From Geobacter sp. FeAm09 (GTDB lineage: Bacteria > Desulfobacterota > Desulfuromonadia > Geobacterales > Pseudopelobacteraceae): DNA of 64,000 nt. The position numbers were made by a program, and so were the translations under genes. Shown one piece after another: positions 9,047 through 26,122 of this stretch. Location of the stretch: contig NZ_CP042466.1 of the NCBI RefSeq assembly GCF_008330225.1, positions 2,908,001 through 2,972,000 of the forward strand. Reading direction: 5' to 3'. The first letter of the stretch is position 1. Every line of letters begins with the position of its first letter. Below the pieces are notes generated by a model that did no database searches, was not told the DNA's origin, and worked only from the letters and a program-made list of their open reading frames with translations.

Positions 9047-9132
9047 ATTTCCTCCTTGTCTTTCGTGTGCCGACGAGGTGGGAGATCACCAAGCGGCTTT
9101 TGACCCGGTGCATCTTCCTGGTTGTATAATGC

Positions 9133-10001: not shown

Positions 10002-10018
10002 AGATTTAATTATCCTTA

Positions 10019-10068: not shown

Positions 10069-10098
10069 ATGAAGCGGCAGACGCATAGAAATGTTGGC

Positions 10099-10872
10099 TC
10101 AAGCGGCGGACATTCCGAATTTCTTTCTCAGAGCCAGTACGAATTCAATTTCCTTTGGCGGACGCGATTCCTTGAAAGTCGGCCAGTAATCCGCCTGACG
10201 CTCCGGCATATTCACCACCTCGCTGTTCTGGGCGATCAAATCCAGGAGCTTATCAATGTCAGTACCGGGAAGTCCTCCAGCGGCTATACTCATTGAATCG
10301 GGGTAGTACTGAACTGGCAGAAAAGCATAGCGATCAAACGATAGAACTTGATACATGGTGTTGATGAGGTCTCTCGTGTCAAGGAGCTGTTTTAAGTCAA
10401 GCTGCCTTTCTTCTATTTCTTCCTCGCTTGGCGTAGTCGCTTTTTTAAAATTGAAGTGTGCGACATAATTGTGCCGAATCTCTGTGCATACTTTTTGCAC
10501 CGCTGCCATTTTTTTATCGTAATCAGCCGCCCTTAGCTTGTCGGCAAATTCGCCTTTAAATCCTGCCTTGATATAGTCTTTAAAAATTTTATTTCGCAGC
10601 TGGCCAAGTGTCAGACCTTGGGATTCTGTATCAATAGTCAACTTCCAGATTGAAAGAATTACGCTGTCGAAAAGCGCCTTCTCGACATATTCCCAAAATG
10701 GTCCGTAGTCGTCCAGTATCAGGCTCCACGGGAAGTTTAAAATTTTTTCCATGAGGTAGAGGTTTGCGTTAAAGTTCGTTACTTCGTTCGCAATAGCACT
10801 CACTTCAAGCTCATATGCTGCCAAATGGGCAGGGTCGATTATTTCGGCAGTCTGGTGATCATTCAGTGACAC
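10099..10872 (-). CDS. AbiU2/HEPN-like protein, possible abortive-infection RNase
   Basis: A 257-residue, mostly helical protein. Residues EIRHNYVAHFNF fit the Rx4-6H motif of HEPN ribonucleases, and the surrounding pattern (N-terminal WxxVEKALFDSVILSIWKL, then the RHNYVAH block) resembles AbiU2-type proteins linked to abortive phage infection. It starts at GTG 10872 behind AAAAGGAG. It is the first of four genes on the minus strand in an AT-richer patch. The RNase and defence roles are inferred from the motif and context only; HEPN-like folds also serve as non-catalytic partners. Confidence 0.6.
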   Translation of the reverse strand: MSLNDHQTAEIIDPAHLAAYELEVSAIANEVTNFNANLYLMEKILNFPWSLILDDYGPFWEYVEKALFDSVILSIWKLTIDTESQGLTLGQLRNKIFKDYIKAGFKGEFADKLRAADYDKKMAAVQKVCTEIRHNYVAHFNFKKATTPSEEEIEERQLDLKQLLDTRDLINTMYQVLSFDRYAFLPVQYYPDSMSIAAGGLPGTDIDKLLDLIAQNSEVVNMPERQADYWPTFKESRPPKEIEFVLALRKKFGMSAA

Positions 10873-11385
10873 TGCATTCTCCTTTTAGGTATGGAATCTC
10901 CATATTCTTTCTTCCTTCATTCCTTCACAACCTTCTCCACTGGGTTTCCTGTCCTCTCGAATCAACCCTATAGGCTGCCCATCCTTTTCCGCCCCCTCCC
11001 CTTCTACTCCACACAAACGCGAATTTCAACGCAATTTCAACATGTTAATAAATTTAACACAAATAAGACCATCACCTATCCCCCTGTTTTCACATTAAAA
11101 ACGGCACCAGAAACCTGTTCGGGCACCACCGTTTGTGACATTTTGATACAAAAAAACATTCCGACCTGGCACAGAGAGTGCCGGCGGGGGGTGCCACCTA
11201 GGGCAACCGACCTTACGACACTGCCCTACAGCCCGCCACGCCGCCCCACCAGCCGTGCGTCTTGATCTTTTCTTGACGCTTTCCCCCCGCATTTTCACAC
11301 CATCTTTACCCGGTACGTCCTATGGTAACAAATGAAGGACAAACGAACGCCCACGGGCGACCCGTTCCAAAAGGAGCCGGATTAC
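10873..11385. other. Gene-free spacer between the accessory patch and the kdp operon
   Basis: No convincing coding region is seen in these 513 bp. The left part is pyrimidine-rich; 11030-11160 is AT-rich. A possible sigma54 promoter lies at 11167-11182. The potassium-pump promoter and any leader regulatory element should be here, but no known riboswitch class could be recognised by eye. Confidence 0.6.
11167..11182 (+). promoter_or_regulatory. Possible sigma54 (-24/-12) promoter ahead of kdp
   Basis: The sequence TGGCACAGAGAGTGCC has GG and GC separated by exactly 10 bases, the invariant spacing of sigma54 promoters. It lies about 205 bp before the small ORF and 278 bp before kdpA. The same bases form a short inverted repeat (GGCAC/GTGCC), so an operator is an alternative. 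Confidence 0.3.
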
Positions 11386-11463
11386 ATGGTACACTTTCAG
11401 GAAGACGCGACACGGGGCGGCATCGTGCAGAACGCCGCCCGCCCCATGGAGAAACGGCCATGA
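11386..11463 (+). CDS. 25-codon ORF overlapping the kdpA start
   Basis: The ATG at 11386 follows AAAAGGAG at ideal spacing, a stronger ribosome site than that of kdpA. The ORF ends with TGA overlapping the kdpA ATG (ATGA). The peptide ([12 protein letters not shown]... ending RPMEKRP) is hydrophilic. It is therefore not KdpF, the small membrane subunit usually found here. It probably couples translation into kdpA or acts as a leader peptide. It is too short for certainty. Confidence 0.45.
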
Positions 11464-13238
11464 ACCTCTACGAATGGTTGCAGACGATCCTCTTTTTTGC
11501 CCTGCTGCTGGCCCTGATAAAACCGCTGGGGATGTTCATGGCCAAGGTCTACCAGGGGGAGCGCACCTTCCTGTCGCCCCTCTTTGTCCCCTGCGAAACC
11601 ATCCTCTACCGGATCTGCGGGGTGAACAAGGACGAGGAGATGGATTGGCGGCGCTATGCCCGGGCCATGATCCTGTTCAACCTGGCCCTCTTCGCGGCGC
11701 TCTTCGCCCTGCTGACGCTGCAGCACCTACTGCCCCTCAACCCGCAGAAATTCCCGGCCTTTACCTGGCAACTGGCGCTCAACACCGCCGTAAGCTTCGT
11801 CACCAACACCAACTGGCAGGCCTACAGCGGCGAATCGGCCGCCAGCTACTTCACCCAGATGGCGGGACTGACGGTGCACAACTTCGTCTCCGCCGCCACC
11901 GGCATGGCCGTCGCCATCGCCCTCATCCGTGGTTTCGTGCGGCGCAGGAGTTCGGCCCTGGGCAATTTCTGGGTCGATATGACCCGCGGCACCCTCTACA
12001 TCCTGCTGCCGCTCTCCCTGGTCGGGGCGATTGTGCTGGTCTCCCAGGGGGTGATCCAGAACTTCGGCGCCTACCGGACCGTGCCGCTCGTGCAGCCGCT
12101 CACCTACGACAAGCCGAAGCTGGACGACAAAGGCAACCAGCTCAGGGACGCCGCGGGGAATCCGGTCACGGAGAGCGTAACCGTGAAAGAGGTCACCATC
12201 CCCATGGGGCCGGTCGCCTCCCAGGAGGCGATCAAGGAATTGGGGACCAACGGCGGCGGCTTTTTCAACGCCAACTCGGCCCACCCCTTTGAAAACCCGA
12301 CCCCGCTCTCCCACGTCGTGGAGATCCTCCTGATCCTGCTGATCCCCGGCGCTCTCACCCACACCTTCGGCGTCATGGTGGGCAACACCCGCCAGGGGTG
12401 GGCGCTGTTGGGGGTCATGCTCCTGCTGCTGCTCGCCTCTTTCGCCGTACTGCAGGGGGTCGAGGCGAGCGGCAATCCCCTGGTGGCCAAACTCGGCGTC
12501 GAGGGGGCCAACATGGAGGGGAAGGAACTGCGCTTCGGCCTGCCCGGCACCAGCCTGTTCGAGGTGGCCACCACCGGCACCTCCTGCGGCGCCGTGGCCG
12601 CCATGCACGACTCCCTCACCCCCCTGGGCGGCATGGTGCCCCTGGGCCTGATGCTCTTGGGCGAGATCGTCTTCGGCGGCGTCGGCTCCGGCCTCTACAC
12701 CATGCTGGCCTTCGCGGTGATCGCGGTCTTCGTGTCCGGCCTCATGATCGGCCGCACCCCGGAATACCTGGGCAAGAAGATCGAGGTGCGGGAGATGTGG
12801 CTGTCGATCGTCACCATCCTGACGGCCGGGGTCGTGGTCCTCATCCTGTCGGGGCTTGCCATGATCACCACGCAGGCAACGGCGGCCATGGCCAACCCCG
12901 GCGCCCACGGGCTTTCCGAGGTGCTCTACGCCTTTGCCTCCCTGGCCAACAACAACGGCAGCGCCTTTGCCGGCCTGAACGCCAACGTCCCCTTCTACAA
13001 CCTTCTCGGTTCGCTGGCCATGGTTCTCGGCCGCTACGTTCCGGCGGTGGCGGTGCTGGCCATGGCGGGTTCCCTGGCGGGGAAAAAGTATGTCCCCCCC
13101 AGCCTGGGCACCCTGCCGACCGACAAGGTGCCCTTTGCCCTCTGGCTGGCCCTGGTCATCGTGATCATCGGCGCCTTGACCTTCTTCCCGGCCCTGTCGC
13201 TGGGACCGATTGCGGAGCACCTGCACATGGTTCAGTGA
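11460..13238 (+). CDS. kdpA: Potassium-transporting ATPase, channel-like subunit KdpA
   Basis: A 592-residue polytopic inner-membrane protein that binds and conducts K+ in the high-affinity KdpFABC pump. Family signatures include [40 protein letters not shown] (split here across two conserved loops) and [21 protein letters not shown]. The ATG at 11460 (MNLYEWLQ) is chosen over longer in-frame starts because the upstream residues are not conserved and it is coupled to the short upstream ORF. kdpB and kdpC follow on the same strand. Confidence 0.95.
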
Positions 13239-13276
13239 AGTCCGGCTGATGACGCAGGAACCAAGGAGATACCCCC

Positions 13277-15346
13277 ATGTCCACCCATATCCCGCAACAG
13301 AAATCCATCTTTGATCCGGAGCTCATGAGGGGGGCGTTTATCGCCTCGCTCAGAAAACTCGACCCCCGCGACCTCTGGCGCAATCCGGTCATGCTGTGCG
13401 TCGAGCTCGCCGGCCTCGTCACCCTGGCGACTTTCGTCATGTCGCTCGCCGGAGCGAACCGGGAACCGGCACTGTTCACCGGAAGCGTATCCCTGTGGCT
13501 CTGGCTGACGGTCATCTTCGCCACCTTTGCCGAGGCCCTGGCCGAGGGGCGGGGCAAGGCGCGGGCCGCCTCGCTGAGAAAAAGCCGTACCGAGGTGACC
13601 GCCAGGCTCCTGGCCAAGCCGGATTTCCAGGGCGCCGCCACCACGGTCGATGCCGGCCGGCTCCGCAAGGGGGATCTGATCCTGGTCGAGGCGAACGCGA
13701 CGATCGCCGGCGACGGCGACGTGGTGGCCGGCGCGGCCCTGGTGAACGAGTCGGCGGTCACCGGCGAGTCGGCCCCCGTGATCCGCGAGTCGGGCGGCGA
13801 CCGCAGCGCCGTCACCGGCGGCACCACGGTCATCTCGGGCAGCATCATCGTCAGGATAACCGCCAATCCGGGCGAGACGTTCCTGGACCGGATGATCTCC
13901 CTGATCGAGGGGGCCAAGCGGCGCAAGACCCCCAACGAGGTCGCCCTGGAGGTGCTGCTCATCGCCCTGACCCTGGTGTTCCTGCTCGTGTGCGCCAATA
14001 TCAGCCCGCTCTCCGTCTACAGCGTCAAGGCCGCCGGCCAGGGCACGCCCGTATCCCTCACCACCCTGGTGGCCCTGTTTGTCTGCCTGGCGCCCACCAC
14101 CATCGCGGCGCTCTTGCCCGCCATCGGCATCGCCGGCATGGACCGGCTGTTCCAGAAGAACGTCATCGCCTTGTCGGGGCGCGCCATCGAGGCGGCCGGC
14201 GACGTGAACGTCCTGCTGTTGGACAAGACCGGCACCATCACCCACGGCAACCGCGAGGCGGTGGCCTTCGTGCCGGTGGGCGGGCACACCGAACAGGAAC
14301 TGGCCGAGGCGGCCCTGACGGCGTCCCTGGCCGACGAGACCCCGGAAGGGCGCAGCGTCGTCGCCCTGGCCGGCAGCAAATACGGGCTGAGACGGGATGC
14401 CCCGCCGGCCGATGCCGAGGTTATCGATTTCAGCGCCGAGACGCGGCTCTCCGGGATCGACACGGGCGGCAGGCACTACCGGAAGGGCGCTGCCGACGCC
14501 ACCATTGCCTTTGTCAGAAGCCTGGGTGGGCGGGCCATCGCCCCCGATCTGGAGGATGTGGTGGACAGGATCGCCCGCGCCGGCGCCACGCCGCTGGTGG
14601 TTAGCCGGGACAGCGAGATCGTGGGCGTCATCAACCTCAAGGACATCGTCAAGGCGGGTATCCAGGAGCGTTTCCTGCAACTGCGCACCATGGGGATCAG
14701 GACCGTCATGATTACCGGCGACAACCAGCTGACCGCAGCGGCCATCGCCGCCGAGGCCCAGGTGGACGACTTCCTGGCCCAGGCCAAGCCCGAGGACAAG
14801 CTGCGCCTGATCCGGGAGAACCAGGAGGCCGGCTACATGGTGGCCATGACCGGCGACGGCACCAACGACGCCCCGGCCCTGGCCCAGGCCGATGTGGCCG
14901 TGGCCATGAACAGCGGCACCCAGCCGGCCCGCGAGGCGGCCAACATCATCGACCTGGACAGCAATCCGACCAAGCTCCTGGACATCGTCGAGGTGGGCAA
15001 ACAGATCCTCATGACCCGCGGCAACCTGACCACCTTCAGCATCTCCAACGATGTGGCCAAGTACTTCGCCATCGTCCCGGCCATGCTGCTCACCATCTAC
15101 CCCCAACTGGGACGGCTCAACGTCATGCACCTGGCCACCCCCTCCAGCGCCATCCTGTCGGCGGTCATCTTCAACGCCGTCATCATCCCGCTTTTGGTGC
15201 CGCTGGCCCTGAAGGGAACCAGGTTCCGCCCCCTGCCGGCCGAGAAGCTCCTGATCCACAACCTGCTGATCTACGGCGCGGGGGGGATCGTCGCGCCCTT
15301 TATCGGGATCAAGGCCATCGACATGGTTGTGGCGATGATTGTGTAG
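13277..15346 (+). CDS. kdpB: Potassium-transporting ATPase, catalytic subunit KdpB
   Basis: A 689-residue P-type ATPase. The phosphorylated aspartate lies in [11 protein letters not shown], the actuator loop is VTGESAPV, and the hinge is [28 protein letters not shown] and [20 protein letters not shown] are typical of KdpB. It hydrolyses ATP to drive K+ uptake through KdpA. It follows kdpA by 38 bp behind AAGGAGAT. The length is normal for the family. Confidence 0.96.
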
Positions 15347-15404
15347 CCAAAGCCGCCCTCCCTCATTTAAGAGGAGAGGTGGTTACAAAAAAGGAGAAGA
15401 CCCC

Positions 15405-15983
15405 ATGAAAGAGCTGCGTCCCGCCATCATGACGCTCATACTGTTCACCGTCATCTGCGGCGGCATCTACCCGGCACTGGTCACCGGCATCGCCCGGGCC
15501 GTTTTCCCGAAGCAGGCCAACGGCAGCCTCATTGCCGGCAAAAACGGCGCAGAACTCGGTTCGGCCCTGATCGGCCAACCCTTTTCCGCTCCGCAGTACT
15601 TTTGGCCGCGCCCATCGGCAACCGCTGATTTCGGCTACAACCCCATGGCGTCGGGAGGTTCCAACGCGGGCCCCACCACCCCCGATTACCTGAAGACGGT
15701 CGGCGACAGGGTAAGGGCGCTGCGCGACACGGGCGTGGCCGGCCCGATTCCCGCCGACCTGGTGCAGGCCTCGGCCAGCGGGCTCGACCCCCATATCACG
15801 CTCGCGGCCGCAAAGCTCCAGATCCCGCGGGTAGCCAGGGCACGCGGCTTGGGGGAGGAAACCGTGGCCGAACTGCTTGCCCGGGCTGCCGAAGAGCGTC
15901 AACTGGGCTTCCTGGGGGAACCGCGGGTGAACGTGCTCATGCTGAATCTGGCGCTGGACAGGCTGGGTTCGTTGCCGGGATAG
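15405..15983 (+). CDS. kdpC: Potassium-transporting ATPase subunit KdpC
   Basis: A 192-residue protein with one N-terminal transmembrane segment (about residues 8-30) and a periplasmic domain. Conserved blocks include LIGQPFSAPQYFWPRPSA, DLVQASASGLDPHI and RVNVLMLNLAL. It stabilises the KdpAB complex. The ATG at 15405 follows AAAAAGGAGAAG; longer in-frame starts overlap the end of kdpB and are unlikely. No kdpD/kdpE sensor genes follow: the next gene is unrelated and a terminator-like hairpin intervenes. Confidence 0.94.
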   Translation: MKELRPAIMTLILFTVICGGIYPALVTGIARAVFPKQANGSLIAGKNGAELGSALIGQPFSAPQYFWPRPSATADFGYNPMASGGSNAGPTTPDYLKTVGDRVRALRDTGVAGPIPADLVQASASGLDPHITLAAAKLQIPRVARARGLGEETVAELLARAAEERQLGFLGEPRVNVLMLNLALDRLGSLPG

Positions 15984-16027
15984 GGGCGCGATATGGCGTA
16001 ACGGTGCGTATATGATGGGTCATACTG

Positions 16028-16061
16028 ACGGCCTCGCCCACGGGGGGGCCGTTTTATTTTT
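16028..16061 (+). terminator. Intrinsic terminator after kdpC
   Basis: Arms ACGGCC (16028-16033) and GGCCGT (16047-16052) with a GC-rich inner region are followed by a T-rich run (TTTATTTTT). It lies 45 bp after the kdpC stop and should end the kdp transcript. Confidence 0.65.
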
Positions 16062-16127
16062 GCGGAAAATGGTGGGGGTAAAACCCGTCAAACCGCAACT
16101 AACTTATGCATAAATAAGCATAATTGT

Positions 16128-16156
16128 TTGACATGATTTTTGAACAGGTATACAAA
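16128..16156 (+). promoter_or_regulatory. Sigma70-type promoter for the cytochrome cluster
   Basis: TTGACA at 16128-16133 and TACAAA at 16151-16156 are separated by 17 bp in AT-rich sequence, about 55 bp before the DUF4388-like gene. It is the clearest promoter for the 16.2-21.9 kb gene set. Confidence 0.6.
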
Positions 16157-16209
16157 TATGAAACTTTCGCCTGCTGCTGTCATGATGATTTCTACTCTAG
16201 GAGATAGTT

Positions 16210-17175
16210 ATGTTCCTTCTTCCGAAAGGCAACCCTCTTTTTGAGAATCTGGCAGTCGGCACGCTGAAGCTGCCTGAAGTCATGTCGAAGCTGAGCACCG
16301 GCAATTTCACCGGGTATGCCAGCTTTGTTTTTCAGGAATCCACCATCATACTGGTGTTTGAGGCCGGCAAGGTAGTCAGCGCGCTGCACGAAGAAGCGAA
16401 CGGCAACCGGGAAACCGGTTTCGAGGCCCTGTCGGCCCTGAGCCACCTGATGGTCGGCACCAGCGGCGGCGTCCTCAACGTCTACAAGCTCTCCAAAGAC
16501 CTCACCATGTGCATCCATGCCCTGCTCCAGGGCGAGATCCTCTACAAGGCGCAGGAACTCAAGCTGATCGACATCAAGGGGCTCCTGGAAAGGATCGGCT
16601 CCGAGAAGATGAGCGGCTGCCTGCGGGTGTACACCGATGAACGTTCCGCCATCATCTTCTACAAGGACGGCGCCCCCCTGGGATTTTTCCACGACGGCTC
16701 CCAGGATATCGAAACCTCGTCCACCGAATCCCAGAAGATCGCCGGGCTGCCCGGCGCCAAGATCGATCTCTTCTCGACCCAGGGGAGTGAACACCTGAAG
16801 GGGCTGAACCTGCTGGAGGTCGTCAACATCCAGAACATCTGGGAAACCGCCGTTGCGCAGCAGCAATCCGAGATCGACAGGATCAATGCGGCCCGGGAAG
16901 AGCGGGAAAGAAAGAACATTGCCGGTAAACTTGCGGAGCTGGAAGAGCAGGTGAAGGCCATTGTCGTCGAATCGGTCGGCAGGGTCGGGCGGGGCATCGT
17001 CGATAAGGAGTTGAACGACCAGGGAGGCAACAGCTGCCTGCTCGACGAGACCAATGTGGTGAAATTCCTCGCCGGCGTCGAACGTTCGGCAAAGCTTCTT
17101 ATCAGCGCAACCAGCCTCAAAGTCATGATGGAGCAGCTTTCCCGGACCATCACCGCGGCCAAATCGGAACATTGA
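16210..17175 (+). CDS. DUF4388-like protein of unknown function
   Basis: A 321-residue soluble protein without signal peptide. It contains two similar units (residues about 20-60, GNFTGYASFVFQESTIILVFEAGKVVSAL, and about 125-165, MSGCLRVYTDERSAIIFYKDGAPLGFF). These have the glycine-strand-glycine pattern of DUF4388 domains, which are common in delta-proteobacterial signalling proteins. A helical C-terminal part (about 215-320) may form a coiled coil. It is the first gene after a good promoter and precedes a membrane protein and three haem proteins by short gaps, so it may regulate or localise that system. The domain call is by eye. Confidence 0.65.
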   Translation: MFLLPKGNPLFENLAVGTLKLPEVMSKLSTGNFTGYASFVFQESTIILVFEAGKVVSALHEEANGNRETGFEALSALSHLMVGTSGGVLNVYKLSKDLTMCIHALLQGEILYKAQELKLIDIKGLLERIGSEKMSGCLRVYTDERSAIIFYKDGAPLGFFHDGSQDIETSSTESQKIAGLPGAKIDLFSTQGSEHLKGLNLLEVVNIQNIWETAVAQQQSEIDRINAAREERERKNIAGKLAELEEQVKAIVVESVGRVGRGIVDKELNDQGGNSCLLDETNVVKFLAGVERSAKLLISATSLKVMMEQLSRTITAAKSEH

Positions 17176-17207
17176 ACGACTTTTCATAGCGCAATCGGAG
17201 GCCAAGA

Positions 17208-17957
17208 ATGGAACAATTCATCGAACTGCTCTCCCAGGTCAACACCTTCGAGCTCATCAGGACGATCTCCTGGGGCTTGGCCGGTGCCATAAGCTTTTAC
17301 TTCAGTATCGGCAACGCCCGGGTGTGGACCAGCATTTCCATCGGCTTTTTTCTCATCTTCCTCGGTCAGGCCTATGCCATCAATCCCTGGGTAAACTACT
17401 ACAAGCTTTCCGCGTTCCACAATATCGTCGGGACCGTGGCCATTGTGGTGATCACCCACGGCTTTCTGGAATACTATGTTTTTTGCCGCACCTTCGAGAT
17501 TTCCGGCAAAAAGGTTGTCGTCTATCTTTTCTCGCTGCTGATCCTGGTCGCAGGGGGGGCCTTCCTGCTCGTCAACCCGACCCCCAGCCCCAACACCATC
17601 AGAAACTTCAAGATTGTCGAGAACGCCATCTGGGTGTTCCTCTCCATAATGAACCTGGAGCTGATCCGCAAGATCTACGTCGCCATCAAGGACTCCCCCA
17701 TTTCAAAGGGCTTCATCGCCTTTGGCATCGTTTTCTTCCTGGTCTTCCTCTGGAGGGGGTCGGAGCTCTATCTGCAAATCTTCCAGTGGGATAAGGACTG
17801 GCAGGACATCATCGCCGTCATGACCGACGAGGTCTCGGATATCGACAACTTTGCCGGCCGGGTGCAGGTTTCGGTCCTCGTCAACAAGTATGCGGGCTTC
17901 CTCTCCAGCCTGTCGGTCGGGGGGACGTTCATCTATATCTACCGTTTGCTCAAATAG
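17208..17957 (+). CDS. Polytopic membrane protein of unknown function
   Basis: A 249-residue protein with about six or seven hydrophobic segments (for example ISFYFSIGNARVW, FHNIVGTVAIVVITHGFLEYYVF, VVVYLFSLLILVAGGAFLLV and GFIAFGIVFFLVFLW). A histidine in a membrane segment (THGFLEYY) could be a haem or quinone ligand, but no cytochrome b family is recognised. It starts 32 bp after the DUF4388-like gene and is followed after 50 bp by the multihaem lipoprotein. A role in passing electrons from the inner membrane to the periplasmic haem proteins is an inference from position only. Confidence 0.65.
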   Translation: MEQFIELLSQVNTFELIRTISWGLAGAISFYFSIGNARVWTSISIGFFLIFLGQAYAINPWVNYYKLSAFHNIVGTVAIVVITHGFLEYYVFCRTFEISGKKVVVYLFSLLILVAGGAFLLVNPTPSPNTIRNFKIVENAIWVFLSIMNLELIRKIYVAIKDSPISKGFIAFGIVFFLVFLWRGSELYLQIFQWDKDWQDIIAVMTDEVSDIDNFAGRVQVSVLVNKYAGFLSSLSVGGTFIYIYRLLK

Positions 17958-18007
17958 CCGAACTGCCGCGGGAACGCATGTTGCGCATTTTTCCAGGAGG
18001 ATCACGC

Positions 18008-19867
18008 ATGGTCTCAAGAATTGTCGCTGCATCACTGTTTCTGGCAACGTGTCTGTTCAGCCTGGCCGGTTGCGGCGAGAAAACGGTAACGGTCAGCGGC
18101 AGCACCAAGCTGGCCCAATCGGAAGCCTGTTTCAGCAACAACTGCCACCAAAACGCCGTCAGCCCCGGCACCGGCAAGAATATCGCCGAAGAGTGGAAAC
18201 TTTCGGTCCATAACACCTCCAACGCCGCCGGCTGCGCCGACTGCCACGAGCCGGAGGCGGGACACCCCAACAGTTGCAGCCGTTGCCACGGCGGTACGCC
18301 GAGCGGCACCCCGGGCAGCGCGAACCACGTCAGCAGCAACCCCGATACGGACGGCAAATGCGACAAGTGCCACGCCAAGGCAAACGGGGTGTTCAATACC
18401 ACCACCTACGACGCCGTCGCCCTGGATACGAAATTCAATCATTTCAGCAGCGGCAGACATGCCGTCTACGTTGCGGCCAACTACAAGTATTACTGCCGCA
18501 AATGCCATAATCCCCACGACACCACCACCGCCAGGACCATGCTTCGGCAGTGGGCCCGCTCCGCCATGGGGGGCACCACCCTCCCCAGCACCGTCGATTT
18601 CAAAACCCGCGGGAGCGCCCTGACGGCGAGTGCCAACTATGGCAACTTCTGCGTTCGCTGCCACACCTCCACCGGCTTCATCAACTTCGTGACGTCCGGT
18701 TTTACCAACGTACATGCTCTGCCCGACCTGGACGGCGTACGAAACGATTACCCCGTGAACGCGCGCTCCACCTATCAGGACACGACCCGTGAGCCCACCG
18801 CGGCCTGCGACACCTGCCACAGCGACGGCAGGGCCTATGACGGCAGCGCCTACAGCGGCAAGTTGCGCAGCGTGCCGGCAGCTTCGATCTGGTACATGTA
18901 CTCGTCCCATCCCGCAGGCGCCCCCCTGATCCGGGCCGCCCTGAACATCGCCTATGACTCTCTCGGCAATTCGAACGTCTGCATGCCGTGCCACGCCGGG
19001 CGCGAAGTCGGGGAGATCATCAAAACCGCCGACAAGCTCGGCCTGTTCAACTACAACGGCACCAATCCGGCAGGCATCGCGCCCCACGATTTTGCCTCCG
19101 GGGCCAACCTGCAGGGCAGAAGCGGCTTCCAGTTCTTCAGCAGCTCCCGGTACACGGCCGGCACGGCTCACAGAAATGTCGGCGCCGGCCTGAACATGAC
19201 GGCGCAAGGCGCCTGCATCGTCTGCCATATGGTCAATGATCGCCCCCACTACGCCCTGGCGGCGAGCTGGGGCAATTCCAGCACGGTCAGCAACTCCATC
19301 AAAAGCATGCCGAGCGAGCAGCAGGTCTGCAGCACATGCCATTACGCCGGTTCCGCGGTCGCGGACCCGAACCGGCGCACGGCGACGTTCATGAACGCCG
19401 AACGCGACAGCTACCGGGCCGCGGTACTGGTGCTCAACGCCCTGCTGAGAAGCTACGGCATCTATGGCGCCAGCCCCAGCCTGAGTCCCAACAACAACTG
19501 GAAGAAATTCGGCAACTATACCGTTGCGGCCTCCGGTTCCGGCAAAATCCGCGCCGGCGCCTACACCATGGGCGCCTACTTCAACTACAGCCTCTTTTTC
19601 AACGACCCGGCCGGATACACCCATAATCCCATCTATTCCAAGCAGCTCATCTACGACTCCATCGATTGGCTGGTGAACAACAACCAGAACTTTACCGCCG
19701 GCGCCAACCCCGGCACCGTCTATACGGCCGTCCACAACGCCGCCATGCCGGCATTGCCGCTTACCAGCAGCGGCATAACCTACTCGGGCCCCTACACCAC
19801 CGACCAGGCCCTGAGTTTCATCTGCAAAAACTACGTCAGCGGCTCAGGCCTGTGCTACCGCTGGTAA
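18008..19867 (+). CDS. Multihaem c-type cytochrome lipoprotein (nine CXXCH plus one CX4CH)
   Basis: A 619-residue exported lipoprotein: the signal peptide ends in a lipobox (LFSLAGC), so the mature N-terminus is a lipidated cysteine. Nine CXXCH haem sites are present (CADCH, CSRCH, CDKCH, CRKCH, CVRCH, CDTCH, CMPCH, CIVCH, CSTCH). There is also a first CFSNNCH site of the rarer CX4CH type. The ATG at 18008 is chosen because AGGAGG precedes it; an upstream in-frame ATG at 17978 lacks a site. Such lipoproteins carry electrons across or on the outer membrane in Geobacter. The porin that follows supports a conduit role. No close named homologue is claimed. Confidence 0.9.
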   Translation: MVSRIVAASLFLATCLFSLAGCGEKTVTVSGSTKLAQSEACFSNNCHQNAVSPGTGKNIAEEWKLSVHNTSNAAGCADCHEPEAGHPNSCSRCHGGTPSGTPGSANHVSSNPDTDGKCDKCHAKANGVFNTTTYDAVALDTKFNHFSSGRHAVYVAANYKYYCRKCHNPHDTTTARTMLRQWARSAMGGTTLPSTVDFKTRGSALTASANYGNFCVRCHTSTGFINFVTSGFTNVHALPDLDGVRNDYPVNARSTYQDTTREPTAACDTCHSDGRAYDGSAYSGKLRSVPAASIWYMYSSHPAGAPLIRAALNIAYDSLGNSNVCMPCHAGREVGEIIKTADKLGLFNYNGTNPAGIAPHDFASGANLQGRSGFQFFSSSRYTAGTAHRNVGAGLNMTAQGACIVCHMVNDRPHYALAASWGNSSTVSNSIKSMPSEQQVCSTCHYAGSAVADPNRRTATFMNAERDSYRAAVLVLNALLRSYGIYGASPSLSPNNNWKKFGNYTVAASGSGKIRAGAYTMGAYFNYSLFFNDPAGYTHNPIYSKQLIYDSIDWLVNNNQNFTAGANPGTVYTAVHNAAMPALPLTSSGITYSGPYTTDQALSFICKNYVSGSGLCYRW

Positions 19868-19904
19868 CGATCTGCCTTTAACCCACGAGGAGGAAGACAC
19901 CACC

Positions 19905-21400
19905 ATGACAAGAAAGCCGGCTTTGATTCTCTGCCTGATAGGATCGTGTCTTGTCCAACTGATTGTGGTCGCCCCGTCCCACGCCATCCCGGCGTTCAGC
20001 CGCGCCTACAAGGTGGAATGCAGCACCTGCCACACCATCTACCCCGAACTGAACGAGTACGGCGAGGCGTTCCTCAAAAACTCCTACGTCTATTTCGGCA
20101 AGGGACAGAAAGGGGCCAAGGCCAAGGAGGCCACCCCTCCCCCCGCCCCCGCTCCCGGGGCGACGACCCGGCCGGCCGGCGGTGCCCTGGAGGTGAAAGG
20201 GGAAGGCGACGCCGACAAATTGAGCAAACTGAAGGCCGGGGCCATGGGCGCCTCCGACGTCCCCACGCCCCAGCCGGCCCCGGAAGCGGCAGCACAGGCC
20301 GCCCCCCCTCGCCCCAGGGCGAGGCCAAGTCCGAAGGGCTCCTCCTGGCGGCCATCCCGGAACTGTTGCCCATATCCTTCACCGCCTCGGTGCACGCGAC
20401 CTACGACCACAACGCCGTCAACGAACTCGACCTCTCGACGCGGGTCCTCAAGCTGAACGCCGGCGGCAACTTCCGGGAAAAGGCGGCCTTTTTCGCCACC
20501 TATGTGGCCTACAGCGAGAACACCAGCAACATCACGACTACCACGAGCGCCACGCCCAGCAACAACGGCACCAACATCAACGAGCTCTTCTTCATCTGGC
20601 GCCATGCCCTCGACACCCCCATCAACCTCAGGGTGGGGCGCATGCAGCCGAAGCTCGGGCTCTGGAAGTCCAACAACAAGCTCTCCACGACCAACTCCTT
20701 TGCCCCCTACGCCTACACGGTCGGCGTTTCGGAGTTCACGGTCCAGCAACCCCAGGACGCCCTGGAGGCCAATGCCGTCCTGGCAAACCGCTTCTTCATC
20801 GCCGGCGGGGTGGTGAACCGCAAGCAGCAGAACGCCAAAGAGGGCTACGGCCACATCTCCTACAAGTTCGGCGGGGCGGATTACCTGGCGAACGAACCGG
20901 AGGTGGACCTGGCCAAGGAGGAGAGCATCCTCGACTTCCTGACGGTCACCGTCGGCGCCTACGGCTACTACGGCAAGAACGGCACCCCGAACACCACGGC
21001 AGGCGTATCACCCATCCAGAACACCTACTACCGCAGCGGCCTGGACCTGGATATCCTCTACAAGCTCTTCAGGCTCAGGGTGGCCGGCGTCCTGGGCAAG
21101 GACGACAACGCCTGGCTGGCCACGACCCCGACCGAGGTAAAATCCTATGTTGCCGCAGTCGAGGGGGAGTACACCTTTCTCCAGAATCTCATCGGCGCCA
21201 TGCGGTTCGAATATCAGGATGACGGGCGCGGCCTGGTGCGGCGCTTTATCCCGACCCTGGGATACGCCCCCCTGGAGAACGTCAAGGTCGCCCTGGAGTA
21301 CAAACATGAGATCGCCTCTGCGTACAAATCGTCCCCGAGTTCGAGCGCCCAGGATTTCACCAATAAGATCGGAACCCTCGGGGTGACGTTCAGTTTCTGA
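19905..21400 (+). CDS. Fused monohaem cytochrome-porin, split by a one-base frameshift
   Basis: The N-terminus has a signal peptide and a single haem site in FSRAYKVECSTCHTIYPELNEYGEAF, the pattern seen in haem-porin fusions such as Cyc2. A Pro/Ala-rich linker follows, then an outer-membrane beta-barrel ending in phenylalanine (GVTFSF). The two halves are in different frames: the first runs to 20456, the second covers the barrel. Adding one C to the 7-C run at 20302-20308 joins them as PPSPQGEAKSEGLLL and gives about 498 residues. This is probably a sequencing error, with a real frameshift or slippage as alternatives. The neighbours are a multihaem lipoprotein and a small cytochrome. Confidence 0.8.
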
Positions 21401-21476
21401 TGGATACGCCATGACCGGGTGGCCTTACCCCGTTTGGCCATACCAGCCGCCATAATCTCGTCTGAAGGAGTCTCAC

Positions 21477-21839
21477 ATGCGGAAACTCATCATACTGGTC
21501 ACGCTCTTCACACTCGTCATCGCCTCGGTTGCCGACGCACGCATCAGGGTAAAGGGACGCGGGGACAAAATGAATTTCGATCCCGACAGCATCCCGGCCA
21601 ACTTCAAGGCATCGTTCGACCTCATGACGCGGAAATGCGTCAAGTGCCATACCATGGAACGGACCGTCATTGCCGTGCAGACCGGAAGAGCCCCCATCAC
21701 GGGCCAGCCCTTCGACCGGCAGGCGGTCAAGGCCTATGGCATCAAGATGCTGCGCAAACCCAATTCCAATATGAACAAACAGGAGATCAGGGATGTTGTC
21801 GTACTGTTGAATTTCCTGCTCGACGAGAACGCCAGGTAA
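21477..21839 (+). CDS. Small periplasmic monohaem c-type cytochrome
   Basis: A 120-residue protein with a signal peptide (MRKLIILVTLFTLVIASVADA) and one haem site (RKCVKCHTMERT, about residues 54-58). Methionines further on (KMLRKPNSNMNKQEI) could give the distal haem ligand. The mature protein is about 100 residues, the size of a class I cytochrome c. The ATG is preceded by GAAGGAG. It is the last gene of the haem cluster, followed by a strong terminator, and could shuttle electrons to the porin-cytochrome complex. Confidence 0.88.
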   Translation: MRKLIILVTLFTLVIASVADARIRVKGRGDKMNFDPDSIPANFKASFDLMTRKCVKCHTMERTVIAVQTGRAPITGQPFDRQAVKAYGIKMLRKPNSNMNKQEIRDVVVLLNFLLDENAR

Positions 21840-21889
21840 GGGGAGCCGGCCATGCCGGCACATGGCCCGTTGTCGTCGCCTGCTTCCGA

Positions 21890-21922
21890 CAGCCCCGCCC
21901 CTCCCGGTGCGGGGCTGTTTTT
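21890..21922 (+). terminator. Intrinsic terminator after the cytochrome cluster
   Basis: Arms CAGCCCCGC (21890-21898) and GCGGGGCTG (21909-21917) with a 10-nt loop are followed directly by TTTTT. Confidence 0.85.
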
Positions 21923-22112
21923 GTAGTATAATCGCCTTATTTTATTCTTGAAAATTCCGTTCCGATTATGCAGAGTAGGGTTTCATTCCCATGCCGTCGA
22001 ACGGAATGAACGACTTCCCGCACGTGCGGCGGACAGGGCTGTGTGCCGGAAAACCGGGAAACGGCGCACCTTCCGCCATGCATGATCGATCCCACGGACA
22101 AAGGGGCGCGCA

Positions 22113-22619
22113 ATGCCGCTGAAACAGGACCTGCTGGACGCTCTTCACATAAGCGAAGACGAATTGCTCAGGCATCTCATCCGTGATGTGGAGGAGGTTT
22201 TCTGCACCATGGTGGGCATGGAGGACCTGCTGCACCTGCCGCTCCAGGTCGCCCCGGAGACGCATTTCAAGGATTGCATCACGGCAATGGTGGGCTTTGC
22301 CGGTGTGTATAACGGCCTGGTGAGTCTGCATGTCCCCCGGAAGCTGGCGCTGGCCTTCACCTCAAGCATGCTCGGCATGGAGGTCACCGAACTGAACGAC
22401 GATGTTCGCGACGCCTTGGGCGAAATCTCCAACATGATCGCCGGTTCCTTCAAACAGCATATCTCGCCGGGCGGGGCCGACATCAAGCTGTCGACGCCTT
22501 CGCTGGTCAGCGGCGAGGACTACTATGTCAACGCCGGCAACAATCTCGACACCCTGACCCTCCGCTTCGCGACCGACGAGGAGTGGTTCATGGTGGCGAT
22601 CGTGCTCGAAAAGGAATAG
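22113..22619 (+). CDS. CheX-like chemotaxis phosphatase-family protein
   Basis: A 168-residue protein of the CheC/CheX/FliY fold. The conserved acidic-Asn motif is DALGEISNMIAGSFK (residues about 91-105), where the glutamate and asparagine promote dephosphorylation of CheY-P. GLVSLHVPRKLALAFTSSMLG is the matching hydrophobic block. The start ATG follows AAAGGGG. It stands alone, between the cytochrome terminator and the methionine riboswitch. A second CheX-domain protein occurs at 31596, next to a CheY. Its partner response regulator is not identifiable here. Confidence 0.8.
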   Translation: MPLKQDLLDALHISEDELLRHLIRDVEEVFCTMVGMEDLLHLPLQVAPETHFKDCITAMVGFAGVYNGLVSLHVPRKLALAFTSSMLGMEVTELNDDVRDALGEISNMIAGSFKQHISPGGADIKLSTPSLVSGEDYYVNAGNNLDTLTLRFATDEEWFMVAIVLEKE

Positions 22620-22706
22620 GCACAGGCGGGCCGGGGCACGGCCCCGGGCCAAGGGTAATAACCCCCCGGTTCGCTATCCCTTTACCTCTTCCGTCAAAAA
22701 TAATTA

Positions 22707-22735
22707 TTGACAGGATTGGTGGCATACCGTAGGCT
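22707..22735 (+). promoter_or_regulatory. Promoter for the S-box methionine operon
   Basis: TTGACA at 22707-22712 and TAGGCT at 22730-22735 with 17-bp spacing place transcription start near 22742, about 30 nt before the riboswitch. The -10 box is weak. Confidence 0.5.
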
Positions 22736-22772
22736 CAAGCCACAACAATTCTCACAAAAACCGCATACATTT

Positions 22773-22875
22773 CTTATCGAGAGCGACCGAGGGACTGGCC
22801 CGACGACGTCGCGGCAACCAACCTGCAAGGGTAAGGTGCCAATTCCAGCGAAACCACACGGTTTCGGGAGATAAG
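22773..22875 (+). promoter_or_regulatory. SAM-I (S-box) riboswitch
   Basis: The aptamer opens with CTTATCGAGAG and closes with GATAAG, which pair as helix P1. The conserved core is present: GAGGGACTGGCCCGACGA, CGGCAACC, and AAGGTGCCAATTCC. These are the hallmark segments of S-box leaders that bind S-adenosylmethionine. A terminator follows within 20 nt, so the expected logic is premature termination when SAM is plentiful. It should control the two trans-sulfuration genes and probably thiF and mnmA behind them. Confidence 0.95.
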
Positions 22876-22893
22876 GAAGAGAAGCCCTCGAGG

Positions 22894-22930
22894 AATCCTC
22901 TTCCGCACCCCGGAAGGGGATTTTTATTTT
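22894..22930 (+). terminator. Riboswitch-controlled intrinsic terminator
   Basis: Arms AATCCTCTTCCG (22894-22905) and CGGAAGGGGATT (22911-22922) form a 12-bp stem, followed by TTTATTTT. It lies between the SAM aptamer and the first methionine gene, as in terminator-type S-box leaders. Confidence 0.88.
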
Positions 22931-22942
22931 GGGAGGTAGCAG

Positions 22943-24079
22943 ATGAACATCAGTACGCAGGCGGTCCAGATCGGCCTGGAATGGGATACCAGGACCGGCG
23001 CGGTTTCGGTGCCCGTTTACCAGACCGCCACCTTCAGGCACCCGGGGCTCGGCCAGAGCACCGGCTATGATTACACCCGCTCGGGCAATCCGACCCGCCA
23101 GTCCCTGGAAGACGGCATGGCCCGCCTCGACAACGGAACACGCGCCTTTGCCTATGCCTCCGGCATGGCCGCCATCGCCAACCTGCTGTTGCTGTTCCGC
23201 TCGGGGGACCATCTGGTCGTCACCGAGGACCTGTACGGCGGCACCTGTCGCCTGTTCGACAAGGTGTTCAACCAGTTCGGGCTGACCTTCAGCTATGTGG
23301 ATACGAGCGACGTGGAGGCGGTGCGGGCGGCGCTCACCCCCCGCACCAGGGCGGTGTTCGCCGAAGCGCTCACCAACCCCCTGCTGAAATTTGCCGATAT
23401 CCCGGCCCTGTCCACCCTGTGCCGCAACCACGATCTGCTGCTCATCGTGGACAACACCTTTCTCACCCCGTACCTTCTGCGCCCCCTGGATCTGGGAGCC
23501 GATATCGCCGTCTACAGCGCTTCCAAATACCTGGCCGGCCACAACGACACCATCGCCGGCCTGGCGACGGTCAGGGACGCCGAACTGGCCGAGCGGGTCT
23601 ACTACCACCAGAACGCTGCCGGCGCAATACTGGCCCCCCAGGACTCCTGGCTGGTGATGCGCGGCATCAAGACCCTGGGGGTCCGCCTGGACCGGCAGCA
23701 GGAAAACGCCGCCAAACTGGCCGGCTGGCTGAAAAATCACCCGGCCGTGGCCAAGGTCCACTACCCGGGCCTGGCGGAACATCCCGGCCATGCCCTGATG
23801 CAGCGAGACTCCCGCGGCTTCGGCGCCATGATCGCTTTCGAGGTCGCGAACCACGAGCTGGTGGAACAGGTGCTCCTGAAAACGCGCCTGATCTCCTTCG
23901 CGGAGAGCCTGGGCGGCGTGGAAAGCCTGATCACCTTTCCCGAGGTGCAGACCCACGCCGACATACCGCAGGAACTCCGGGCGCGGCTCGGCATCAACGA
24001 TACCCTGCTGCGCCTGTCGGTCGGCATCGAGGACAGCAACGACCTGATCGCGGATTTGAACCAAGCCCTGGGGGCGTAA
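22943..24079 (+). CDS. PLP-dependent trans-sulfuration enzyme, MetI/MetB-type (cystathionine gamma-synthase or O-acylhomoserine sulfhydrylase)
   Basis: A 378-residue Cys/Met-metabolism PLP enzyme. The cofactor lysine is in YSASKYLAGHND, the substrate/PLP block is YDYTRSGNPTR and the phosphate-binding SGMAAI follows. It is the first gene behind the S-box terminator with a GGGAGG ribosome site. The order, an S-box followed by two such genes, matches Bacillus metI-metC. By that analogy this one makes cystathionine (or homocysteine directly) from acylhomoserine. Exact substrate cannot be told from sequence. Confidence 0.85.
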   Translation: MNISTQAVQIGLEWDTRTGAVSVPVYQTATFRHPGLGQSTGYDYTRSGNPTRQSLEDGMARLDNGTRAFAYASGMAAIANLLLLFRSGDHLVVTEDLYGGTCRLFDKVFNQFGLTFSYVDTSDVEAVRAALTPRTRAVFAEALTNPLLKFADIPALSTLCRNHDLLLIVDNTFLTPYLLRPLDLGADIAVYSASKYLAGHNDTIAGLATVRDAELAERVYYHQNAAGAILAPQDSWLVMRGIKTLGVRLDRQQENAAKLAGWLKNHPAVAKVHYPGLAEHPGHALMQRDSRGFGAMIAFEVANHELVEQVLLKTRLISFAESLGGVESLITFPEVQTHADIPQELRARLGINDTLLRLSVGIEDSNDLIADLNQALGA

Positions 24080-24089
24080 GGAGACGACC

Positions 24090-25226
24090 ATGAAGTTTGC
24101 AACCCAACTCATCCACGGCGGCCAGACCGCCGATCCCCTGACCGGCGCGCTGGGCGTGCCCATCTACCAGACCTCCACCTATCGCCAGCAGTCGGTGGAC
24201 CACTTCGGGAAATACGACTACGCCCGCTCCGACAACCCCACCCGCGAGGCGCTGGAAGTGGCCATCGCGGGCTTGGAAAAGGGGAGCCGGGCCTTTGCCT
24301 TTGCCTCCGGCATGGCGGCCATTTCCTCCACCCTGTTGATCTTCTCCCCCGGCGACCACCTGGTGGTGTGCGACGATGTCTACGGCGGCGCCTACCGGGT
24401 GCTGACCAGCATCTTCCAGCGCCTCGGCATCAGTTCCACCTTCGTGGACGCCACCAGCCTCGAGGCCATCGAGGCCGCCATCAGGCCGGAAACCAGGGGT
24501 ATCTACCTGGAGAGCCCTTCCAACCCGTTGCTCAAGGTCACCGACCTGCGCAGGGTCGCGGCGCTGGCCCGGCCGCGGGGCATCATCACCCTGGTGGACA
24601 ACACCTTCATGACCCCCTACCTGCAACGCCCCCTGGAATTGGGATGCGATATCGTCCTGCACAGCGGCACCAAGTTCCTGAACGGCCACAGCGACGTCAT
24701 CTGCGGTTTCGCCGTCGTGGCCGATGGGGAGCTGGGCAATCGCATCCGCTTCATCCAGAACGCCTTCGGCGCCATCCTGGGACCCCAGGATTCCTTTCTG
24801 ACCCTGCGAGGGCTCAAGACGCTCAAGGTCAGGATGGACCAGAGCCAGCGGAGCGCCGAAAAGATCGCGGCTTGGCTCCAGGCGCAGAAGACCGTCTTCA
24901 AGGTGCATTATCCCGGTCTCGCCGACCACCCCGGCCATGCCGTCAATGCCGCCCAGGCCGACGGCCCCGGCGCCGTCCTCTCCTTCGAGCTCGAATCCTA
25001 CGAGCTCACCAAGCGACTGCTGGAGCACACGCAGTTTTCCGCCTTTGCCGTCAGCCTGGGAGGGGTGGAAAGCATCATCTCCTACCCGGCCAAGATGTCC
25101 CACGCGGCGGTCCCTCAAGAGGAACGGGAAAGGAAGGGGATCAAGGCCACCCTGATACGCCTCTCGGTCGGGCTGGAGGATGCCGACGACCTGATCGACG
25201 ACCTCGGCCAGGTCATCGGGAGCTAG
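24090..25226 (+). CDS. PLP-dependent trans-sulfuration enzyme, MetC-type (probable cystathionine beta-lyase)
   Basis: A 378-residue paralogue of the preceding enzyme, 10 bp downstream of it. The PLP lysine lies in HSGTKFLNGHSDVICG; YDYARSDNPTR and SGMAAIS are the other cofactor blocks. LESPSNPLLKVTDL and VSLGGVESIISYPAKMSHAAVP are typical of cystathionine beta-lyases and gamma-synthases. Paired with the first enzyme under the S-box, it probably splits cystathionine to homocysteine, the substrate of MetH (encoded at 54.3 kb). A gamma-lyase role cannot be excluded. Confidence 0.85.
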   Translation: MKFATQLIHGGQTADPLTGALGVPIYQTSTYRQQSVDHFGKYDYARSDNPTREALEVAIAGLEKGSRAFAFASGMAAISSTLLIFSPGDHLVVCDDVYGGAYRVLTSIFQRLGISSTFVDATSLEAIEAAIRPETRGIYLESPSNPLLKVTDLRRVAALARPRGIITLVDNTFMTPYLQRPLELGCDIVLHSGTKFLNGHSDVICGFAVVADGELGNRIRFIQNAFGAILGPQDSFLTLRGLKTLKVRMDQSQRSAEKIAAWLQAQKTVFKVHYPGLADHPGHAVNAAQADGPGAVLSFELESYELTKRLLEHTQFSAFAVSLGGVESIISYPAKMSHAAVPQEERERKGIKATLIRLSVGLEDADDLIDDLGQVIGS

Positions 25227-25315
25227 AAAACTCTTGCCCCGCCGGCAGTTTGGGGTTACACATCCCCTACGCCGGAACGCCCGGTGACACCAACGCAGAC
25301 GAAAACGGTTTACCC

Positions 25316-26122
25316 ATGCGCATACGGATAAACGAGATAGCGGCCGAAATCTGCCCGGGGGCCTCTCTGGCCTCCCTGGCCGAACAATGGAAGCCGGGGG
25401 CGGATGTGCTGATCCGCAACGGCTTTCCGGCTCCGCCCGAGACGATGGTCCGGGATGGCGACGAGGTCTACCTGATCAAACGGGGGGAGCGGCCGACGGC
25501 GGAGGAGTTGCAGCGGCTCATGGCGGCCCGCCATACCCCGGGGGTCCATGCCCGGCTGCAGGCGGCCGTGGTCGGCATCGCCGGTGTCGGCGGGCTCGGT
25601 TCGGCGGTGGCCGTGGCCCTGGCCCGGACCGGCGTCGGCAGGATCGTGATCGCCGACTTCGACGTGGTGGAGCCGTCCAACCTCAATCGGCAGCAGTACT
25701 TCATCGACCAGGTGGGCCAGCCCAAGACGGCCGCCCTGGCCGACAACCTGGCCCGCATCAATCCCGCTGTCACGGTGGAACCGCACCAGGTCATGCTGGG
25801 CCCCGCCACCATCCCGACGATTTTCGCGCCGTGCGCCGTTGTGGTCGAGGCCTTCGACCGGGCCGACATGAAGGCCATGCTGGTGGAGACGCTCCTCGGC
25901 AGCCTGCCCTCCGTCACGGTGGTGGCCGCCTCGGGGGTGGCGGGGTATGGTCCCAACAACGCCATCGCCACCCGGCGGGCAGCCTCCCGGCTCTACCTCG
26001 TGGGGGACGGCGCATCCGAGGCCCGGCCCGGGTGCGGCCTGATGGCCCCGCGGGTCGGCATCGCGGCCGGGCACCAGGCCAACCAGGTGCTCCGCATCAT
26101 TCTCGGCGAGGAGGGGATCTGA
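25316..26122 (+). CDS. ThiF/MoeB-type E1-like adenylyltransferase with ThiS-like N-terminus
   Basis: A 268-residue protein. Residues 1-65 have a ubiquitin-like pattern (DVLIRNGFPAPPETMVRDGDEVYLIKRG is ThiS-like) but no C-terminal Gly-Gly, so this part is not itself a sulfur carrier. From residue 80 an E1-type fold follows: GVGGLGSAVAVALARTGVG is the ATP site, DFDVVEPSNLNRQQY the adenylation block. Such enzymes adenylate the tail of a small sulfur-carrier protein for thiamine, molybdopterin or homocysteine synthesis. No carrier gene is seen here. Its stop overlaps the start of the second mnmA (TGATG). Confidence 0.8.
   Translation: MRIRINEIAAEICPGASLASLAEQWKPGADVLIRNGFPAPPETMVRDGDEVYLIKRGERPTAEELQRLMAARHTPGVHARLQAAVVGIAGVGGLGSAVAVALARTGVGRIVIADFDVVEPSNLNRQQYFIDQVGQPKTAALADNLARINPAVTVEPHQVMLGPATIPTIFAPCAVVVEAFDRADMKAMLVETLLGSLPSVTVVAASGVAGYGPNNAIATRRAASRLYLVGDGASEARPGCGLMAPRVGIAAGHQANQVLRIILGEEGI

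What the first reader, a model, noticed from the sequence alone, without database searches (positions are those of the whole stretch)
16128..21922. A haem-protein cluster with a fused haem-porin: a possible distinct outer-membrane electron conduit
One promoter and one terminator bracket a DUF4388-like protein, a polytopic membrane protein, a lipoprotein with about ten haem sites, a porin with its own N-terminal haem motif, and a monohaem cytochrome. Known Geobacter conduits (OmaB-OmbB-OmcB and the Ext clusters) use separate porin and cytochrome subunits. Cyc2-like fusions of iron oxidisers are normally not paired with a multihaem lipoprotein. Having both in one cluster is unusual, and the membrane protein could supply the inner-membrane step. 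The role is inference; sequence shows only the motifs and order.
Basis: partly seen in the sequence, partly recalled or inferred. Interest (0 to 1): 0.65.

Follow-up and report, generated by a model that had tools for sequence, protein, structure and literature searches.

The report
Haem-porin conduit with swappable cytochrome cap
Many iron-reducing soil bacteria carry a small gene set that probably moves electrons through the outer membrane using a porin with its own haem, a small helper cytochrome, and a surface cytochrome of the same family that serves the well-known Geobacter conduits.

Summary
The cluster is real, but in this assembly the porin gene is split by a frameshift in a C-rich linker: haem motif in one frame, barrel in another. 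In 57 of 60 related loci one ORF holds both. By size the genome is Geobacter sp. FeAm09, assembled from PacBio reads alone, so an assembly error is likely but unproven. Haem-porin and monohaem cytochrome go together: 72 of 73 haem-porin genomes in the order have the small cytochrome. A multihaem lipoprotein lies beside them in 57 of 60 loci. It is homologous over its length to surface cytochromes of OmbB-OmaB-OmcB-type clusters. In a 79-row tree the two groups interleave; a single clade is rejected, and a stricter set still needs at least four changes of partner. So an exchangeable OmcB-position cap is joined to an unrelated Cyc2-like 16-stranded haem-porin. The barrel matches OprP/OprO, as Cyc2's does, but 0 of 57 meet the strict published Cyc2 motif. 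The cap's fold is nearest OcwA. DUF4388 and the membrane protein form a separate unit, an unlikely dedicated inner-membrane step. My literature searches found no description of this conduit. Electron flow and its direction are inferred.

The parts
16101..16160 (+). Upstream block conserved in the genus, with TTGACA at 16128-16133; candidate promoter
   Evidence: present in 5 of 5 genus members aligned; not listed by the consensus scan
16210..17175 (+). DUF4388/DUF2226 protein, 321 aa; accessory, perhaps regulatory (a guess)
   Evidence: PF14332 and PF09987 above cut-off; linked to the haem-porin in 21 of 60 loci only
17208..17957 (+). Polytopic membrane protein, 249 aa, travels with DUF4388; no significant family match
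18008..19867 (+). Ten-haem lipoprotein, family of the OmcB-position caps of OmbB-OmaB-type clusters; OcwA/NrfA-like fold
19905..20456 (+). Haem-porin gene, first frame: signal peptide (by eye), haem motif CSTCH (20019-20033), linker, then out of frame
20300..20330 (+). Site of the frame break (C-rich linker with a run of seven C at 20302)
20318..21400 (+). Haem-porin gene, barrel part in a second frame (16-stranded in the model of the O. japonica relative)
21477..21839 (+). Monohaem cytochrome, 120 aa, signal peptide by eye, conserved Met (possible distal ligand)
21888..21919 (+). Intrinsic terminator
   Evidence: also listed at 21902

Best explanation
A trans-outer-membrane electron conduit. 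The fixed core is a Cyc2-like haem-porin (N-terminal monohaem domain, linker, 16-stranded OprP-like barrel) and a small, probably periplasmic monohaem cytochrome. The ten-haem lipoprotein is the exchangeable outer-surface cap, of the same family that caps OmbB-OmaB in classical Geobacter conduits. Proposed flow: periplasmic carriers to the monohaem cytochrome, to the haem-porin, to the cap, to extracellular acceptors such as Fe(III). Shown: gene order, haem motifs, conservation, folds by model, homology and exchange of the cap between the two kinds of cluster. Inferred: haem attachment, surface location, complex formation, electron flow and its outward direction. DUF4388 and the membrane protein are accessory. 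In the window's own assembly the porin frame is broken, so function in this strain is uncertain.
For: Haem-porin and monohaem family co-occur: 72 of 73 haem-porin genomes have the small cytochrome somewhere, 49 of 68 without haem-porin lack it too (Fisher 5e-21, not corrected for kinship). They are on the same strand in 55 of 55 loci measured, median gap 46 bp (three of 58 loci left out). MHC beside it in 57 of 60 loci. The MHC aligns over its length with caps that follow OmbB-OmaB-type genes: window 29% over 598 columns, a relative 41% over 583, and 43% over 565 with one of the two doubtful caps; 23 caps in such clusters entered the tree. One clade of the 56 haem-porin-linked caps is rejected (p-AU 4e-5); branches with SH-aLRT of 95 or more force at least 6 changes of partner with 79 rows and at least 4 after four doubtful rows are dropped. 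In two of four genus relatives the cap is only 42-48% identical while barrel is 81-90% and membrane protein 88-93%, as expected of an exposed, replaceable part. Barrel model matches OprP/OprO best, Z 26, the template reported for Cyc2. The strain was isolated as an Fe(III) reducer.
Against: No haem, complex or activity was measured. One haem in a 16-stranded barrel may not bridge the membrane to a cap; the haem domain is of low confidence in the model (pLDDT mostly under 50). Window porin frame broken. Outside the order, five loci have haem-porin and small cytochrome relative but no MHC hit in the DNA fetched (L201-L205), and L090 in the order has none, so the cap is not always linked. In two of four genus relatives the cap is as conserved as the rest, 86-87%. 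The own genome's OmbB-OmaB-type cap aligns to the window's only in part, 25% over 462 columns. OmbB and OmaB labels rest on architecture and on profiles that I built from four loci. Trees are quick ones without bootstrap.
Confidence: 0.68

Rival explanations
1. Electron uptake: a Cyc2-like Fe(II) or other donor oxidase feeding electrons inward through the monohaem cytochrome.
For: N-terminal haem context and OprO/OprP-like barrel as in Cyc2; PXL motif in 56 of 57.
Against: Strict Cyc2 motif in 0 of 57; cap of the same family as those of clusters of the kind known for Fe(III) reduction in Geobacter; strain isolated as an Fe(III) reducer.
Confidence: 0.15
2. The cap is chiefly an extracellular or periplasmic reductase for nitrite, hydroxylamine or sulfur compounds, and the porin supplies it with electrons or substrate.
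For: Cap model best match OcwA Z 11.0, then NrfA and octahaem nitrite reductases Z 7-8; the ONR region with CXXCK aligns to its sixth haem site; OcwA reduces nitrite slowly.
Against: His is invariant at all ten sites, no CXXCK. Z 7-8 may be a common arrangement, as the tool notes; Foldseek alone gave no significant hit. The family also sits in the cap position of OmbB-OmaB-type clusters.
Confidence: 0.1
3. In this strain the conduit is broken: the porin frameshift is real and the gene is decaying.
For: Frame break in the deposited sequence; the longest ORF of the barrel frame has no signal peptide by eye.
Against: PacBio-only assembly; the contig end repeats 73,821-85,560 with 29 gaps among about 31 differences, which suggests uncorrected indels at least there; dN/dS low on both sides of the break.
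Confidence: 0.25
4. Iron or siderophore uptake porin with an incidental haem motif.
For: Weak LbtU siderophore-porin match, 21.5 bits against a cut-off of 90.
Against: Haem context invariant in 26 aligned porins and kept in 57 of 57; small cytochrome beside it in 58 of 60 loci.
Confidence: 0.03

Closest known systems
Porin-cytochrome (Pcc) conduits OmbB-OmaB-OmcB of Geobacter
   Same: Outer-membrane barrel and a multihaem lipoprotein of the same family as the caps of such clusters; this genome has one of that architecture too (L252)
   Different: No 8-haem cytochrome in the cluster; the barrel has its own haem motif, no detectable profile similarity to OmbB-like porins (hhalign probability 8.8), and a monohaem partner
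Cyc2 fused cytochrome-porins (Keffer et al. 2021, PMC8406198; sections 5 and 12 and passages read)
   Same: Single N-terminal CXXCH, PXL downstream, 16-stranded barrel like OprO/OprP
   Different: PAF[ST]R-type motifs in place of the strict one (0 of 57); a multihaem lipoprotein gene alongside. No Cyc2 sequence was compared directly.
OcwA of Thermincola potens (PMC6703420, passages read)
   Same: Best fold match of the cap, Z 11.0 over 233 residues, rmsd 4.1
   Different: OcwA has nine haems, in a Gram-positive cell; the cap has ten sites and a lipobox
Ext clusters of G. sulfurreducens (PMC6148476, passages read)
   Same: Replacement of the outer lipoprotein while inner parts stay is reported there too
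   Different: Separate porin and cytochrome subunits; homology to Ext proteins was not tested here

Membership tests
Cyc2 | Motif AXPXFAR[Q/K][T/Y] before CXXCH | tested here: not met
   0 of 57 relatives with haem motif and barrel in one ORF; a relaxed form 57 of 57 (definition)
Cyc2 | Single N-terminal CXXCH and PXL about 4 residues after it | tested here: met
   57 of 60 have CXXCH in the barrel ORF; PXL in 56 of 57; the window has PEL
Cyc2 | 16-stranded porin like OprO/OprP, at least 365 aa | tested here: met
   Model of the O. japonica protein, 16 strands, Z 26 to 2o4v and 4rjw, other general porins 22-25; lengths
Cyc2 | FeGenie Cyc2 HMM match; Fe(II) oxidation | not testable with these tools
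   HMMs not held; needs an assay
Pcc (OmbB-OmaB-OmcB) | Outer-membrane multihaem cytochrome | tested here: met
   By sequence only: lipobox and ten haem sites; homologous to caps behind OmbB-OmaB-type genes
Pcc (OmbB-OmaB-OmcB) | Periplasmic multihaem cytochrome encoded with the porin | tested here: not met
   Only the monohaem protein besides cap and porin in window 8001-26000
Pcc (OmbB-OmaB-OmcB) | Porin of the OmbB family | tested here: not met
   hhalign probability 8.8; haem-porin profile does not hit the OmbB-like ORFs at E 1e-5
NrfA/octahaem nitrite reductase | Catalytic CXXCK haem | tested here: not met
   His invariant at all ten sites of alignment A3; ONR CXXCK region aligns to CVRCH. 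Some family members elsewhere may use CXXCH (as OcwA)
OcwA-type surface reductase | Fold with C-terminal three-helix bundle; two open haems | tested here: inconclusive
   Fold match Z 11.0; axial ligands not determinable here

The most novel reading that the evidence does not exclude
A second, unrelated outer-membrane passage in Geobacterales, a one-haem porin with a one-haem helper, shares a docking partner with the multihaem OmbB-OmaB passage: surface cytochromes of one family plug into either and have changed partner repeatedly, so respiratory electrons may cross the membrane by a single haem in a narrow barrel.
Probability: 0.45. Interest if true: 0.75.

Novelty: new variant of a known kind. 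Interest (0 to 1): 0.6.

Why it matters
The Pcc conduits described in Geobacter use multihaem chains to span the outer membrane, and Cyc2 is discussed as an Fe(II) oxidase. Here a Cyc2-like porin is joined to an OmcB-position cap, in about half of the genomes of the order examined (73 of 141), and my searches found no account of it. It makes testable whether one haem in a 16-stranded barrel can carry respiratory current, and which part of a conduit sets substrate choice.

Tried and rejected
Inner-membrane role of the membrane protein: tested by distribution; not supported, not excluded. Fixed five-gene operon: rejected. DUF4388 plus membrane protein sit upstream in 21 of 60 loci, all in one family, and DUF4388-membrane protein-monohaem occurs without MHC and porin in five genomes (L221-L224, L226) and as a second copy in the own genome (L232). 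Programmed frameshift: unlikely, as none of the 57 intact relatives has a frame change there. Foldseek on the cap gave nothing significant; only the second-look aligner ranked OcwA. MtrC appears in the PDB sequence list only at E 0.04 or worse. PDB sequence search with the monohaem profile gave nothing below E 0.19. NCBIfam gave no full-score match for any of the proteins of the cluster. Literature: searches (listings) and passages of PMC12133095, PMC5566968, PMC10654088, PMC11389400, PMC7285026, PMC6148476 and PMC4245776, with the outline and abstract of PMC11475568, showed no description of this conduit; subscription papers and supplements were not readable. One search looked up the strain.

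Rows dropped: 60 of the 72 non-own genomes with a barrel were fetched. The tree used 56 haem-porin-linked caps (at least 7 CXXCH, under 900 aa) and 23 pcc-type caps (E under 1e-60, 450-800 aa, OmaB or OmbB called upstream on the same strand). Other strong cap matches in the loci had no such neighbour called in range, were at contig ends, or were of other length, and were left out. Two of the 23 are 1.9 and 2.3 kb from OmaB with another cytochrome between, and three (L265, L276, L284) have only OmbB called. One search dropped the first two and two haem-porin caps 1.37 kb from the porin (L082, L083); the AU test was not repeated on that set. L067, 2.2 kb from the porin with a second MHC between, was kept. 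L251 was cut to its last 700 residues; it and L255 14017 are not. An earlier tree of 64 rows forced at least 4 changes.
Full report
Identity of the genome. The window lies at 2,908,001-2,972,000 of a single 4,099,068-base contig. The published size of Geobacter sp. strain FeAm09 is the same (PMC7849695, first of two parts of the text read); on that ground I take it to be this strain, isolated as an Fe(III) reducer and sequenced with PacBio RS reads alone. A same-genus genome in the search, G114, has the contig length of Oryzomonas japonica (L091).

The observation. The five genes are present in the order given. The lipoprotein has nine CXXCH and one CX4CH; in 40 aligned proteins, the window's included, the Cys and His of all ten sites, the lipobox Cys and seven further His are invariant. 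The porin is not a single frame here: haem part and barrel are in different frames, separated by a C-rich linker in which the window has five extra bases against O. japonica. In 57 of 60 loci of relatives one ORF carries both; two others are cut by contig ends and one draft genome (L086) is split inside the barrel. dN/dS is low on both sides of the break. The contig's last 11.7 kb repeats 73,821-85,560 at 99.7% with nearly all differences being gaps, which suggests uncorrected indels in this assembly at least at its end; the window has 22 runs of seven or more C or G. I judge an assembly error more likely than a real break, without proof.

Conservation. The barrel is in 73 of 141 genomes of the order, own genome included. 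In 60 fetched loci a monohaem relative is beside it in 58 and the MHC in 57; the two without monohaem and two of three without MHC are at contig ends, and L090 has no MHC match. Order-wide, 72 of 73 haem-porin genomes have the monohaem family somewhere; 19 of 68 others do too. In one family DUF4388 plus membrane protein lie upstream (21 of 60 loci). MHC and porin are on the same strand in 28 and opposite in 26 of 54 loci measured, median gap 72 bp. Outside the order, haem-porins with a relative of the small cytochrome occur with no MHC hit in the DNA fetched (L201-L205) or with an 11-12-haem MHC (L206-L208); a phylum-wide sample gave some porin match in 39 of 395 genomes, many to the haem domain only.

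The lipoprotein is an exchangeable cap. A profile of it matches 122 of 141 genomes at E 0.001, weak multihaem matches included. In the loci that I fetched, 23 paralogues lie behind a roughly 400-aa porin and, in most, an 8-9-haem cytochrome of roughly 230-260 aa, the OmbB-OmaB architecture described by Shi et al. (PMC4245776, passages and section 9 read); others had no such neighbour called. The own genome has such a cluster with a 12-haem cap (L252); that cap aligns to the window's in part only, 25% over 462 columns. To a cap of G020 the window protein aligns at 29% over 598 columns, a relative's at 41% over 583. In a 79-row quick tree the two groups interleave; branches with SH-aLRT of 95 or more force at least six changes of partner, and holding the haem-porin group together is rejected, p-AU 4e-5. 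Without four doubtful rows at least four changes remain. In the genus, two of four relatives (L031, L034) have a cap only 48 and 42% identical while DUF4388, membrane protein, barrel and monohaem protein are 81-93%; the N-terminal porin part with its linker is 61-65%, and in the other two relatives the cap is 86-87%. Published work notes the same looseness of outer cytochromes in Ext and Pcc clusters (passages). This is the best evidence here that the haem-porin does the same job as OmbB-OmaB.

Folds. The haem-porin of O. japonica models as 16 strands (mean pLDDT 72; haem domain and linker poorly defined); best matches OprP and OprO, Z 26, other general porins 22-25, as for Cyc2. Foldseek itself ranked PorB first. 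No similarity to OmbB-like porins is detected. The cap (pLDDT 77) matches OcwA at Z 11.0 over 233 residues and NrfA-type enzymes at Z 7-8, values at which a common arrangement is possible for the latter; Foldseek gave no significant hit. HMMER alignments place its last two haem sites on two late ones of NrfA and an ONR CXXCK region on its sixth site, which is CXXCH.

Mechanism. Shown: order, motifs, conservation, homology and exchange of the cap, modelled folds. Inferred: periplasmic carriers reduce the monohaem protein, which reduces the haem-porin, which passes electrons to the surface cap and on to Fe(III) or another acceptor. The weak step is distance: one haem, with 45-104 residues between its His and the start of the barrel (six measured), must reach the cap. 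A plug in the pore, or a haem domain on a flexible tether, are options that I could not separate. The reverse direction, as in Cyc2, is not excluded.

The upstream pair. DUF4388 and the membrane protein are an independent unit (membrane protein in 61 of 141 genomes, 23 of them without the haem-porin), in five genomes directly followed by the monohaem gene with no MHC or porin. A regulatory or sensing role is a guess.

Known or new. It is neither a Cyc2 by the strict published motif nor a Pcc cluster by its parts, but by my reading works like the latter. I found no description of it in nine full-text searches (listed under Tried and rejected). Verdict: new variant of a known kind.

Noticed in passing
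G000:C1 4,087,354-4,099,068 against 73,821-85,560 (outside the window): The last 11.7 kb of the chromosome repeats an internal stretch at 99.7%, nearly all differences being gaps; looks like an assembly artefact at the contig end, and it duplicates a cytochrome cluster.
   Followed up: partly
L232 (own genome, about 2.003 Mb) and L221-L224, L226: DUF4388-membrane protein-monohaem cytochrome without MHC and porin: a possible older unit into which the conduit genes were placed, or from which they were lost.
   Followed up: partly
L203-L207: Relatives of the monohaem protein beside haem-porins in other families have CX6CH (L203-L205, L207) or CX4CH (L206) in place of CXXCH.
   Followed up: no
L251 6898-11109: A 1403-aa, 15-haem protein in the own genome with two cap-like halves, near a 653-aa protein ending in RYF and five-haem cytochromes.
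   Followed up: no
window 13277-15983 and 22113-25226: Flanks are kdpB and kdpC (names recalled, not from a family search) upstream, and CheX plus two similar enzymes of cystathionine-lyase type (recalled) downstream; CheX and the pair are kept in three of four genus relatives examined, kdpB-kdpC in two.
   Followed up: partly
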